60,219 nucleotides of DNA, taken from Nitrososphaerota archaeon (GTDB lineage: Archaea > Thermoproteota > Nitrososphaeria > Nitrososphaerales > Nitrosopumilaceae). The DNA is taken from contig JABGTD010000063.1 in assembly GCA_018647405.1 (NCBI GenBank), positions 1 through 60,219 of the forward strand, read 5' to 3'. A program made the position numbers and the translations under genes. The notes beneath the pieces were generated by a model, which was given only the letters and a program-made list of their open reading frames with translations, searched no databases and had not been told where the DNA came from. This document shows, one piece after another, positions 14,153 through 21,042 of the stretch (its first letter is position 1; each line of letters starts with the position of its first letter).

Positions 14153-14539
14153 TTATAGATTGCTTATGTCGATTTTTCGACTGTGAGTAATCAAACTAGC
14201 AGAACGGAAAAATACTGCAAGTGTATCCTTACATCCTATGTCACATGATTCTTGAATGCTCATTTTATTGAATTTTCGTCCATGAACACTCAGAATTGCT
14301 GATAATAGGGGAATTATTGCTGCTCTTCCCCCGTATGCTGTATCCTTATCGATGAACCAGAACATTTCCAATGCGTCATCTTCTAGAATTTCTTCTCTGA
14401 TTTTTCCACCAAATTCTGTATAATGACCGATCATTCGTAATTTCCCTTTAGATATGAAATTCATTAATTTGGCAAATTTTATACAGACATAGCATTTGTC
14501 GTCATAAATCATGAGTGGCAAAGTATCCTGAAAATCCAT
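14153..14539 (-). CDS. DCC-family (DUF393) thiol-disulfide oxidoreductase-like protein
   Basis: A 128-residue protein whose N-terminus carries the DCC-type signature YDDKCYVCIKFAK, equivalent to the YDGxCxxC motif of DUF393. The family is predicted to have a thioredoxin-like fold; no well-defined substrate is known to me. Two further cysteines (SCDIGCKD) lie near the C-terminus, which could form a second redox or metal pair. It lies upstream of pepA on the same strand, 24 bp away, possibly in one transcript. Confidence 0.75.
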   Translation of the reverse strand: MDFQDTLPLMIYDDKCYVCIKFAKLMNFISKGKLRMIGHYTEFGGKIREEILEDDALEMFWFIDKDTAYGGRAAIIPLLSAILSVHGRKFNKMSIQESCDIGCKDTLAVFFRSASLITHSRKIDISNL

Positions 14540-14664: not shown

Positions 14665-16332
14665 ATGGGCCTGAATTACTATCAAATTAAAAAAAATGTT
14701 CTTCAAGCTAGAAAATTGGTTATTCGTGGAACTTCGATTGCAGGTTCTGGCCATCCTGGAGGTTCATTTTCCATGGCAGAAATTATGGGTTGTATTTTTT
14801 ATAATCACTTAAAGTATGATCCAAAAAATCCTGAATGGGAAGATCGTGACAAGCTAATTTTATCGAAAGGTCATGCATCTCCCGGTCTGTTTTCAAACAT
14901 GGCAGTAGCTGGATATTTTGAAGAATCTCAATTAGACACTTTACGACAATTTGGAAGTAAACTCCAAGGTCACCCTGATCTAAAATGTCCTGGTGTTGAA
15001 TTTTGTGGAGGTTCTTTAGGAATTGGATTATCTTATTCCATTGGAAATGCATTAGCTGCAAAACTTGATCAAAAAGATACACACATCTTCACTGTTATGG
15101 GTGATGGTGAAAGTGATGAAGGTCAAGTTTGGGAAGCTGCAATGACTGCTGCAAAATATAACGTTGATAATCTTACATTAATTCTAGATAGAAATTTCAT
15201 ACAGCAGGATTCTTACACTGAAAAAATCATGCCACTTGATGAATGTCTTGAAGATAATGAACTACCTGAAATGTGGAAAGATGCTAGTAGATGGAAAACT
15301 GGTGATAAATGGCGTTCCTTTGGATGGAATGTAATTGAAGTTGATGGTCATAGAATTGAACAAGTATCTGATGCAATTACTAGAGCAAAATCTGTTAAAG
15401 GTATGCCATCAATTATCATAGCTAGAACAATCAAAGGAAAAGCAGTTGAACACATGGAAGATAATCCACAATGGCATGGTAAGGCACCTACTCCTGCACT
15501 TGTTCCTGTAATTAATCAAGAATTAGATTCACAATTTATGATTGCACCTTCTATAATAGCAGGTGATATGACAAATCTGGAAAATGAAGTAAAACGTTGT
15601 GATGATGGACGAGCTGATTACATACATCTGGACGTTATGGATGGTCAATTTGTTCCAACTTCTACTTTTGATTATACAAAAATTAAGGAATTAAGACCTC
15701 TAACTGTAATTCCATTTGATACACATCTAATGATTAATGAGCCTGTAAAACAAATTCAAAATTATATTGATGCTGGAAGTGATATTGTAACTGTTCATGC
15801 AGAGGTATGTGATGAATCAAGTTTTGGTGAAATTCATGATTTATTAAAATCAAACAAAGTCAGTGTTGGTTTGGCAATAAATCCTGATACTTCTATGCCT
15901 GATTGGAGTAAAAAATTCATTTCCACACTTGACCAAATTATAGTAATGTCTGTCGTACCTGGAAAATCAGGCCAAAAATATATTGAAAACACACATGAAA
16001 AAACAAAAAATCTAATGATACATCTAAAAGAAAATGGGTTTACTGGTTATGTAGAATCTGATGGAGGGGTCACTCTAGATAATATCGGTGAATGTTTTAC
16101 AGATGGAGCGCGTGCATTTGTTGGGGGTAGTGCAATAATTGGTCAAACTGATGTTAGATTGGTAATACGTGAATTTCGAAATCGAGTATTAAGAACTAGA
16201 CGTAAATTATTGATTCAAAAAGCAAATGAACTTGGTGGGACTGAATTAGTGAATAAATGGATTGATTTGCATGTTATAGGTAAGAAAAAAGATGAATTAC
16301 AGCACATAGCAATGGAGCTTGGATATCAATGA
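14665..16332 (+). CDS. Transketolase N-terminal half fused to ribulose-phosphate 3-epimerase
   Basis: One 555-residue reading frame joins two enzymes of the non-oxidative pentose phosphate pathway. Residues 1 to about 280 are the thiamine-diphosphate-binding half of transketolase: SGHPGGSFSMAE at 28-39, SKGHASPGLF, and the GDGES motif from 147 with Asn177. Residues about 290-500 are a TIM-barrel ribulose-5-phosphate 3-epimerase with all metal and acid-base residues visible: His321 and Asp323 in HLDVMDG, His354 in DTHLMI, and Asp466 in ESDGGV. A basic helical tail of about 55 residues follows. The other transketolase half begins in the ATGA overlap at its end. The fusion is intact in frame and both parts look active. 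Confidence 0.93.
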   Translation: MGLNYYQIKKNVLQARKLVIRGTSIAGSGHPGGSFSMAEIMGCIFYNHLKYDPKNPEWEDRDKLILSKGHASPGLFSNMAVAGYFEESQLDTLRQFGSKLQGHPDLKCPGVEFCGGSLGIGLSYSIGNALAAKLDQKDTHIFTVMGDGESDEGQVWEAAMTAAKYNVDNLTLILDRNFIQQDSYTEKIMPLDECLEDNELPEMWKDASRWKTGDKWRSFGWNVIEVDGHRIEQVSDAITRAKSVKGMPSIIIARTIKGKAVEHMEDNPQWHGKAPTPALVPVINQELDSQFMIAPSIIAGDMTNLENEVKRCDDGRADYIHLDVMDGQFVPTSTFDYTKIKELRPLTVIPFDTHLMINEPVKQIQNYIDAGSDIVTVHAEVCDESSFGEIHDLLKSNKVSVGLAINPDTSMPDWSKKFISTLDQIIVMSVVPGKSGQKYIENTHEKTKNLMIHLKENGFTGYVESDGGVTLDNIGECFTDGARAFVGGSAIIGQTDVRLVIREFRNRVLRTRRKLLIQKANELGGTELVNKWIDLHVIGKKKDELQHIAMELGYQ

Positions 16333-17297
16333 GTACTGAATTTGGTGACATGAGAACTGCATATGGAAATGCATTGATTGAATTGGGTGAACAAGACAAA
16401 AACATTGTTGTCTTAGGTGCTGATACGACTGATTCACTAAAAACATCTGGCTTTGGAAAAATTTTTCCTGATAGATTCTTTAATGTTGGTATAGCTGAAG
16501 CGAATTTGGTATCTGTTGCTGCAGGATTAGCTTATGCTGGAAAAACATCATTTGCAAGTACATATGCAATATTTTTACCTGGAAGATGTGTTGACCAAAT
16601 ACGAAATTCAATTGCATACCCATCCAGAGAAGAAAAAAAAGGCTTGAATGTTAAACTTGTAACATCACATGGTGGACTATCTGTTGGACCTGATGGTGGT
16701 TCTCATCAAACAATTGAAGATATTGCAATCATGCGTGTTATGCCAAACATGAGAGTTTTAATTCCTGCTGATGCTATCGCTGTATCGAAATTAACAAAAA
16801 ATATTTCACAAATTTATGGTCCATTTTATATGAGAATGGCAAGATCCAAAGTTCCTACTGTCCATTCTGTTTCTCAAGAATTTGAAATTGGAAAAGGTAT
16901 TACATTAAGAGATGGAAATGACTGCACTATAGCTGCTACTGGAATAACAGTAAAAATGGCTCTTGATGCTGCAGATAAACTTCAGCAAGATGGAATTTCA
17001 TGTAGAGTAATTGATTGTTTTACAATAAAGCCAATCGACAAAGATATCTTAGAAAAAGCTGCACGTGAGACTGGTGGAATTGTTACTTGTGAAGAACATA
17101 ATATTATGGGTGGATTTGGTTCTGCCGTATCTGAGGTAATCTCTGAAGTATATCCTGTTCCTGTACGTAGAATTGGTGCACAAGATATGTTTGGTGAATC
17201 TGCTCGTGATGCTGAAATTCCACAATTATTAGAAAAACATGGCATCACATCAATTAATATAGAAAAAACTGTCAAGGATATCCGTAGTAAACAATGA
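16329..17297 (+). CDS. Transketolase C-terminal half
   Basis: A 322-residue subunit holding the pyrimidine-binding and C-terminal domains of transketolase. Together with the upstream half it transfers two-carbon units between sugar phosphates. Seen are FGDMRTAYGNALIELG, the catalytic Glu segment FNVGIAEANLVSVAAGLA, and HGGLSVGPDGGSHQTIEDI. Split transketolases are usual in archaea. It overlaps both neighbours by four bases (ATGA), so the subunits should be made in step with the epimerase and transaldolase. Confidence 0.95.
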   Translation: MSTEFGDMRTAYGNALIELGEQDKNIVVLGADTTDSLKTSGFGKIFPDRFFNVGIAEANLVSVAAGLAYAGKTSFASTYAIFLPGRCVDQIRNSIAYPSREEKKGLNVKLVTSHGGLSVGPDGGSHQTIEDIAIMRVMPNMRVLIPADAIAVSKLTKNISQIYGPFYMRMARSKVPTVHSVSQEFEIGKGITLRDGNDCTIAATGITVKMALDAADKLQQDGISCRVIDCFTIKPIDKDILEKAARETGGIVTCEEHNIMGGFGSAVSEVISEVYPVPVRRIGAQDMFGESARDAEIPQLLEKHGITSINIEKTVKDIRSKQ

Positions 17298-19500: not shown

Positions 19501-21042
19501 TCAAAATTGTGATGTTTGCTCAATTATTGTTGATAGATCTTTAGTTTGGCTTTCAGGTAGGCCGGTAATTCCTCCAGTTAGACTATCTGTTTGAATACCT
19601 TTCTCGGCCAAAACATTAGCTGCCATCAATGATGTTCTTCCTGCCATACATACCATCAATGATTTTCCATTTGATTCTTGTAATGCCTTACCAATTTCAT
19701 CTGGAATTTGTTGTCCAGATAGTAATTCTTGTGCAGTTCTAGCATTTGGTATTATGATTTTACTCTTGTCAATTCCAAGTGATTTTGCAAGTAATTCAAT
19801 TCCTTCTTCACGTGGAGTATATTGAGTATGAATCCAAATTACCTTGTCGTAATCATTTGCATTTGATACAACATCTTGTTGTGAAACTTGAGTTGGCGTT
19901 ATACTATTTCCAATTTTTTCAAAATTCTTTCTATATTTTTCAATTCCATCACAAACCATAACAACAAAATTTCCACCATTTTTGTATATCATTTGCAATG
20001 TCGCATAAAGTTCAAGTGCGCTACTTTCGCCCATATCATGTCCTTTATCTACAAAGAATTTCAGTAGCGGTTTTGCTTGTTCAAAATCTACTTGATGCTT
20101 ACCTGCATATTTTTCTGGGTCATAATATTTGAGACCATCTGCATTTCCTATTGTTCTTATTCCTGCAACATCTTGTTGATCTGGAGGAAATATGACATGA
20201 ACTCCTTTTTTGTTATATTTCTCATCAAAATATTTACTAAGACCTCCAGATGTTCCACCAGTTCCAAATGTACAAACAATGTTGTAGTTTTCTAATGATT
20301 CTCCATTCTCATGTAATTGTTGATCAATTTCAACACCTGTGACTGTTCTATGTGCGTCAACATTCAAATCATTATCATATTGTTCAGGACAGAATAAATT
20401 GTAAATTTTTGCAAGAAACTTTGCTAAATTAATTATATCTTTTTTAGCTAAAAGTGTTTCAATATCTGAAATATTATTATCAAAAGTTTCAGATTCAAAG
20501 CCAAGATCAATCATTTGTGAACGAATGTTTGCAGCAGTAGCTTTTGCAACCAATGCATCTTGTTTATCTTCCATTCCTGGTGCAGGACAAATATCCATAT
20601 CAAGATCCATGATTCGAATATTTCCGTTTCTTAATTCTTTGAAGACACCTTCTTGAAGTTTTCTTGAAACAAGTGCAATTGCAGTTACTCCAATTTTTGA
20701 CAATAATCCCAGGGCAATTCCAAAGTTTCCCGATGTAGCTTCAATCACCGTTGTTCCTGAATTAATTTTACCTGTAGTTATTGCATCATGAATTATGTTA
20801 ACAGCTGGTCTTACTTTGATTGAACCTGTAAGTAATGTACAATCAAATTTTCCATAAATTTTAAAATCTTTGTTACTAATGTCTACGTCATATACTGTCT
20901 TTGCACATTCTTTAAGATCATTTGTAAGATCTATCAAAGGTGTAGCATTAACAATTTGCACTTTGCCGTCTTTTTCTTCTCGATGTGGAACCTTGGACCA
21001 TACCTCTTCTTCAAATTTTTTCATTAAGGTATTATCAGACAT
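19501..21042 (-). CDS. PLP-dependent cysteine-synthase-like enzyme fused to a rhodanese-like domain
   Basis: The 513-residue product has two parts. Residues about 25-390 are a fold type II PLP enzyme of the cysteine synthase group, with the PLP lysine in LTGSIKVRPA (Lys76), the substrate loop ATSGNFGIALG, and the phosphate-binding glycine run TFGTGGTSGG. Residues about 395-513 look like a rhodanese domain, ending with the active loop CMAGRTS (Cys465). A persulfide-carrying domain joined to a PLP enzyme suggests coupled sulfur transfer, for example cysteine or persulfide handling; this is inference. It is preceded by a 112-bp gap shared with the divergent ferritin gene. Confidence 0.85.
   Translation of the reverse strand: MSDNTLMKKFEEEVWSKVPHREEKDGKVQIVNATPLIDLTNDLKECAKTVYDVDISNKDFKIYGKFDCTLLTGSIKVRPAVNIIHDAITTGKINSGTTVIEATSGNFGIALGLLSKIGVTAIALVSRKLQEGVFKELRNGNIRIMDLDMDICPAPGMEDKQDALVAKATAANIRSQMIDLGFESETFDNNISDIETLLAKKDIINLAKFLAKIYNLFCPEQYDNDLNVDAHRTVTGVEIDQQLHENGESLENYNIVCTFGTGGTSGGLSKYFDEKYNKKGVHVIFPPDQQDVAGIRTIGNADGLKYYDPEKYAGKHQVDFEQAKPLLKFFVDKGHDMGESSALELYATLQMIYKNGGNFVVMVCDGIEKYRKNFEKIGNSITPTQVSQQDVVSNANDYDKVIWIHTQYTPREEGIELLAKSLGIDKSKIIIPNARTAQELLSGQQIPDEIGKALQESNGKSLMVCMAGRTSLMAANVLAEKGIQTDSLTGGITGLPESQTKDLSTIIEQTSQF

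What the first reader, a model, noticed from the sequence alone, without database searches (positions are those of the whole stretch)
14665..16332. Transketolase N-half fused to ribulose-phosphate epimerase
Two pathway-adjacent enzymes share one intact polypeptide with all expected catalytic residues, followed by the transketolase C-half and transaldolase in ATGA-coupled genes. The epimerase product feeds transketolase directly, so the fusion could channel xylulose 5-phosphate. Normal archaeal split transketolases lack this C-terminal domain. The basic helical tail after the epimerase is also unexplained.
Basis: partly seen in the sequence, partly recalled or inferred. Interest (0 to 1): 0.75.

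Follow-up and report, generated by a model that had tools for sequence, protein, structure and literature searches.

The report
Two-enzyme sugar-phosphate fusion protein
In ammonia-oxidizing archaea half of the enzyme transketolase is joined to a second enzyme of the same sugar pathway, ribulose-phosphate epimerase; the fusion is real but was already reported in 2024, so what is added here is its likely origin and a conserved, unexplained tail.

Summary
Window 14665-16332 holds one intact 555-codon gene: transketolase N-half (PF00456, residues 12-274), ribulose-phosphate 3-epimerase (PF00834, 293-492) and a helical tail, followed by ATGA-coupled transketolase C-half and transaldolase genes. 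It is not an assembly artefact: 188 of 200 genomes of its family match and 66 of 70 of a second family. It is already in print: Padalko et al. 2024 (PMC11237513, passages read) report it in 73 of 98 Thaumarchaeota assemblies. Added here: a third family of the order keeps two genes, overlapping by NTGA in 5 of 5 loci read; both domain trees put the 34 fused rows in one clade; the fusion is the only strong epimerase in 16 of 16 genomes tested; a conserved tail is present in the fused proteins aligned and absent from the 10 unfused epimerases read. Likely role: bifunctional subunit of a split transketolase in the non-oxidative pentose phosphate pathway. Channelling is untested.

The parts
14665..16332 (+). 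Gene for the transketolase N-half / ribulose-phosphate 3-epimerase fusion, 555 aa, stop included
   Evidence: full-length relatives
14698..15486 (+). Transketolase N (ThDP-binding) domain, residues 12-274
   Evidence: PF00456 E=3.3e-44; best solved relative 6yak, N-component of a split-chain transketolase, E=1.2e-71
15487..15540 (+). Junction, residues 275-292; Met292 is where a free epimerase would start but is not conserved (Met in 35 of 51)
15541..16140 (+). Ribulose-phosphate 3-epimerase barrel, residues 293-492
   Evidence: PF00834 E=3.6e-50; solved epimerases such as 7b1w, 1rpx, 2fli
16153..16329 (+). Helical tail, residues 497-555 (helices 497-534 and 540-551); the first helix includes the end of the barrel
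   Evidence: Model; Leu516 and Trp532 invariant in 30 of 30; no Pfam hit for the window's tail, best PDB profile hit E=0.48
16329..17297 (+). Transketolase C-half (pyrimidine-binding and C-terminal domains), 322 aa; overlaps the fusion gene by ATGA at 16329-16332
   Evidence: PF02779 and PF02780
17294..17956 (+). TalC/FSA-type transaldolase, 220 aa; ATGA overlap at 17294-17297
   Evidence: PF00923 E=1.3e-61; TIGR00875 303.5 bits over its cut-off 245.95

Best explanation
The gene encodes a bifunctional subunit. Its N-terminal domain is the ThDP-binding half of a split transketolase and needs the next gene's product to form active sites, as in the solved alpha2beta2 split enzyme. Its C-terminal domain is the cell's only recognisable ribulose-phosphate 3-epimerase. 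With the downstream transaldolase and RpiA encoded elsewhere it completes the non-oxidative pentose phosphate pathway, which here probably runs from fructose 6-phosphate and glyceraldehyde 3-phosphate towards ribose 5-phosphate: transketolase releases xylulose 5-phosphate and the attached epimerase turns it into ribulose 5-phosphate. The fusion most likely arose once, from two neighbouring, slightly overlapping genes, before the families Nitrosopumilaceae and Nitrososphaeraceae parted. Shown from sequence: the fusion, its conservation, its place as the only strong epimerase in the genomes tested, one clade in both domain trees. Inferred: both activities, the heterotetramer, the direction of flow, and fixed 1:1 dosage as the benefit.
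For: Domains and intact frame. Match to 6yak, titled an active alpha2beta2 split-gene transketolase. Catalytic columns invariant in 51 of 51 and identical in the solved epimerases shown. dN/dS 0.02-0.06 (N-half), 0.02-0.12 (epimerase), 0.05-0.17 (tail), each in the 6 of 8 pairs where it could be computed. In 16 of 16 genomes the one strong epimerase hit lies in a frame of 554-605 codons, i.e. the fusion. RpiA in 10 of 10; G6PD_C and 6PGD in 0 of 10; HxlB over its cut-off in 0 of 10. C-half follows in 25 of 25 named fused loci, transaldolase in 24 of 25, the other ending at the locus edge. Fused rows one clade: 100/97 in the epimerase tree, 96/97 in the N-half tree. Unfused genes overlap by NTGA in 5 of 5 loci read.
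Against: No activity, protein or complex was tested. A structure of fusion plus C-half was not modelled. G123 (95% complete) and G020 (90%) of the same family show neither the fusion nor a strong epimerase, unexplained. In 6 of 16 genomes a second, partial hit of 18-24 bits to the epimerase model exists, 4 of them just over the cut-off of 21.1; I take these for other barrels, tested only by eye for the window's genome. The two trees disagree on which unfused group is nearest.
Confidence: 0.85

Rival explanations
1. The same fusion, but kept because xylulose 5-phosphate passes directly between the two active sites (channelling), with the tail holding the domains in register.
For: High confidence of the relative domain placement in the monomer model (pTM 0.89); conserved tail present in fused proteins and absent from the 10 unfused epimerases read.
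Against: No distance between active sites was measured; the C-half, which completes the transketolase site, is not in the model; fixed dosage explains a fusion without transfer.
Confidence: 0.15
2. The cell also or only makes the two parts as separate proteins, by an internal start near Met292 or by cleavage.
For: Met292 stands exactly where a free epimerase would begin.
Against: That position is Met in only 35 of 51 fused proteins; I saw no obvious ribosome-binding sequence before it (by eye); junction lengths are uniform in the alignment.
Confidence: 0.06
3. The epimerase domain has lost catalysis and serves as a structural or regulatory part.
For: A loop motif near the phosphate site differs in the window's family (VPGKSGQ here; residue 434 is Lys in 29, Phe in 14 and other in 8 of 51).
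Against: All seven catalytic columns invariant in 51 of 51, low dN/dS, no other strong epimerase in 16 of 16 genomes while RpiA is kept in 10 of 10.
Confidence: 0.04

Closest known systems
Tkt(N)-Rpe fusion of Thaumarchaeota, cluster 341.1 of Padalko, Nair and Sousa, mSystems 2024 (PMC11237513)
   Same: Same two parts in the same order in the same group of archaea (passage read).
   Different: Nothing in the passages read conflicts; they do not mention the tail, the unfused sister genes or a single origin. The whole paper and its supplements were not read, and cluster sequences were not compared.
Split-chain transketolase, alpha2beta2, PDB 6yak
   Same: N-half alone as a protein, C-half from the next gene; best sequence and structure match (E=1.2e-71; TM-score by target 0.87).
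   Different: 6yak chain is 309 residues and has no epimerase domain or tail.
Free-standing ribulose-phosphate 3-epimerases (2fli, 1rpx, 7b1w, 3ovp)
   Same: Same barrel (TM-score by target 0.86-0.92 in the epimerases listed) and same catalytic columns in the four alignments shown.
   Different: They are separate proteins of about 220-250 residues; here the barrel is fused and carries an added tail.

Membership tests
Published Tkt(N)-Rpe fusion, cluster 341.1 | N-terminus of transketolase fused to epimerase in Thaumarchaeota | tested here: met
   Composition; nearest named locus Candidatus Nitrosopelagicus sp., 97% over 555 residues; text. Sequences of the cluster were not compared.
Ribulose-phosphate 3-epimerase (PF00834) | Family score over the curated cut-off | tested here: met
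   170.6 bits against 21.1; but TIGR01163 (rpe equivalog) 180.3 bits lies under its cut-off 212.6, while NF004076 passes with 183.7 against 165
Ribulose-phosphate 3-epimerase (PF00834) | Metal-binding His/Asp/His/Asp and the three Met residues (roles recalled) | tested here: met
   H321, D323, H354, D466, M325, M356, M428 invariant in 51 of 51, aligned with solved epimerases
Ribulose-phosphate 3-epimerase (PF00834) | Epimerase activity | not testable with these tools
   Needs an enzyme assay
Split transketolase | N-half and C-half encoded by separate neighbouring genes | tested here: met
   C-half follows in 25 of 25 named fused loci
Split transketolase | ThDP and substrate residues of the N-half (roles recalled) | tested here: met
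   H30, H70, H103, D147, N177, H271 invariant in 51 of 51, same letters in 6yak
Split transketolase | Active alpha2beta2 heterotetramer | not testable with these tools
   No complex was modelled or measured

The most novel reading that the evidence does not exclude
The tail is a docking element that came with the fusion and locks the epimerase barrel onto the transketolase core, giving a rigid complex that hands xylulose 5-phosphate from one active site to the other; the separate, overlapping genes of the sister family are the surviving precursor, so the step from coupled genes to channelling enzyme can be tested directly.
Probability: 0.13. Interest if true: 0.6.

Novelty: already known. Interest (0 to 1): 0.3.

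Why it matters
It points to a complete non-oxidative pentose phosphate pathway in ammonia-oxidizing archaea, and annotation that sees only transketolase could score the epimerase as missing. The unfused sister genes make it a clean natural case of gene coupling turning into gene fusion. It would matter much more if transfer between the active sites were shown.

Tried and rejected
Assembly artefact: rejected. A second epimerase in the window's genome: the only other hit (G000 C37, 20.5 bits, under the cut-off) reads like tryptophan synthase alpha by eye (translation; name recalled, not tested). Internal start at Met292: weakened, Met in 35 of 51. Tail as a known domain: no Pfam hit for the window's tail, weak scattered hits for a few other members (4 families, best E 0.045), best PDB profile hit E 0.48. 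RuMP route as another source of ribose phosphate: the HxlB model matches in 10 of 10 genomes but over its cut-off in none, the best hit of each genome lying in frames of 478-626 codons. Paper searches that led nowhere: proteomes, split transketolase, channelling, all judged from listings only.

f1 and f3 are linked to Nitrosopumilaceae and Nitrososphaeraceae by the names of close loci, not by the codes. Several dS values could not be computed.

Full report
OBSERVATION. The ORF at 14665-16332 is open from ATG to stop, 555 codons. Pfam finds Transketolase_N at residues 12-274 and Ribul_P_3_epim at 293-492. The next two genes, transketolase C-half and a TalC/FSA-type transaldolase, each overlap the gene before by ATGA. 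The best solved relative is 6yak, the N-component of a split-chain transketolase; the second part matches epimerases such as 7b1w, 1rpx and 2fli. NCBIfam agrees on both parts, but the epimerase equivalog TIGR01163 stays under its cut-off (180.3 against 212.6 bits) while the subfamily model NF004076 passes (183.7 against 165). The AlphaFold model, made from 30 aligned fused proteins, has mean pLDDT 87.0 and pTM 0.89, with weak stretches at 94-106, 182-188 and 299-301. Foldseek lists 6yak first (TM-score by target 0.87) and epimerases at 0.86-0.92.

PRIOR ART. Padalko, Nair and Sousa 2024 (PMC11237513; [quoted passage not shown] Judged from listings, it was the only relevant paper; one search found none. 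The fusion is therefore known. The passages read do not mention the tail, the unfused sister genes or a single origin.

DISTRIBUTION. In the window's family 188 of 200 genomes match, 117 of 119 of those at least 90% complete; every printed row covers residues 1-7 to 550-555 in one open frame, but the list was cut off. In a second family of the order (f3) 66 of 70 match, 37 of 37 of the good ones; of its 66 printed rows 62 span both domains to residue 505 or beyond (one, G481, with a TGA inside the matched stretch), one reaches residue 469 and three are shorter. In a third family (f2) 7 of 7 match: in 6 the two parts are separate neighbouring genes, in the seventh (G525) only the N-half is seen, at a contig end. 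Of 300 genomes drawn from the phylum 164 match; no printed row from outside the order spans both domains, and that list too was cut off. A scan of named genomes confirmed 570 loci and kept 80: 25 are fused, 5 have a separate epimerase gene nearby, 50 show none within the fetched flank, 3 of these being truncated copies (L118, L122, L123). The fused records are labelled Nitrosopelagicus, Nitrosopumilus, Nitrosotalea, Nitrosomaritimum, Nitrososphaera, Nitrosopolaris, or as unnamed members of Nitrososphaeraceae, Nitrosopumilaceae, Nitrosopumilales, marine group I or Thaumarchaeota; L119 is labelled only 'archaeon'. The nearest, 97% over 555 residues, is Candidatus Nitrosopelagicus, so the window is very likely from that genus.

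MISSES. The 16 genomes without a match were searched with the epimerase family: none has a strong hit; six have partial hits of 21.1-22.4 bits, at or just over the cut-off of 21.1. Most of the 16 are incomplete; G123 (95%) and G020 (90%) remain unexplained.

ORIGIN. Five f2 loci were read: the N-half stops in NTGA (ATGA in four, TTGA in one), the epimerase frame has a start codon in that overlap, and the frame offset is the same in all five. The order N-half, epimerase, C-half, and transaldolase where the locus reaches it, is that of the fused operon. Three other archaeal bins (L120, L121, L124) show this order unfused, while L125, L129, L091 and L092 have N-half, C-half, epimerase. In an epimerase tree of 55 hand-chosen rows the 34 fused rows form one clade (100/97) whose nearest rows are the f2 ones (95/86), though f2 itself is not held together. 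In an N-half tree of 55 rows the 34 fused rows are again one clade (96/97), but f2 groups with L120, L121 and L124 (99/96). One fusion event is the simplest reading; which unfused group is nearest is not settled. Because the frames differ, the fusion needed a small indel as well as loss of the stop (inference).

FUNCTION. Seven epimerase and six transketolase positions are invariant in 51 of 51 fused proteins, the window included (roles recalled). dN/dS (NG86) is 0.02-0.06 for the N-half, 0.02-0.12 for the epimerase and 0.05-0.17 for the tail, each from the 6 of 8 pairs where dS could be computed. In 16 of 16 genomes the only strong epimerase lies in a frame of 554-605 codons, the fusion; 6 of the 16 have a second, partial hit of 18.4-23.7 bits in frames of 268-272 codons, 4 of these just over the cut-off. 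RpiA is present in 10 of 10 genomes; 6PGD in 0 of 10 and G6PD_C in 0 of 10, with both models ringing in 9 of 14 control genomes; HxlB over its cut-off in 0 of 10. Ribose 5-phosphate is therefore probably made by the non-oxidative pathway run from fructose 6-phosphate and glyceraldehyde 3-phosphate, with the epimerase acting on the xylulose 5-phosphate that transketolase makes. This last step is inference from pathway knowledge.

TAIL. After the barrel, helices 497-534 and 540-551 are predicted, with block pLDDT 82-97. Leu516 and Trp532 are invariant in 30 of 30 aligned fused proteins and in 21 of 21 tails aligned alone, although the f3 tail is shorter in the middle. In the 10 unfused epimerases read (five f2, L120, L121, L124, L091, L092) the protein ends soon after the barrel in variable residues. 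So the tail came with the fusion or was lost in the others. No known family matches it. A docking or assembly role is a guess.

VERDICT. Observation confirmed, interpretation partly supported, fusion already in print. The unfused precursor genes and the tail are the parts worth following.

Noticed in passing
15235-15303 (residues about 191-213 of the fusion): The window's family has an insertion of up to about 18 residues in the transketolase N-half, just after the ThDP/Mg-binding stretch, that the second fused family lacks; the model is poor here (block pLDDT 45-56).
   Followed up: partly
15955-15975 (residues 431-437): The loop of the epimerase that reads NPGFGGQ in solved relatives reads VPGKSGQ here; residue 434 is Lys in 29, Phe in 14 and other in 8 of 51 fused proteins.
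   Followed up: partly
19501-21042, - strand: A 513-aa protein with a PLP-dependent enzyme domain (PF00291, residues 60-285) and an unassigned C-terminal part that looks rhodanese-like by eye (the second name is recalled, not tested).
   Followed up: no
14153-14539, - strand: A 128-aa ORF beside the fusion gene with no Pfam match at E 0.001.
   Followed up: no
L089, - strand, start of the epimerase gene: The unfused epimerase of G420 begins with a serine-rich run encoded by a short DNA repeat, absent from its close relatives read.
   Followed up: no
L125, L129, L091, L092: A different operon order, N-half, C-half, epimerase, in bins labelled Bathyarchaeota and Hadesarchaea and in one unnamed genus of the phylum.
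   Followed up: partly
L097: A bin labelled Nitrososphaeraceae carries a fusion 78% identical to the window with the tail type of the window's family; the label may be wrong.
   Followed up: no
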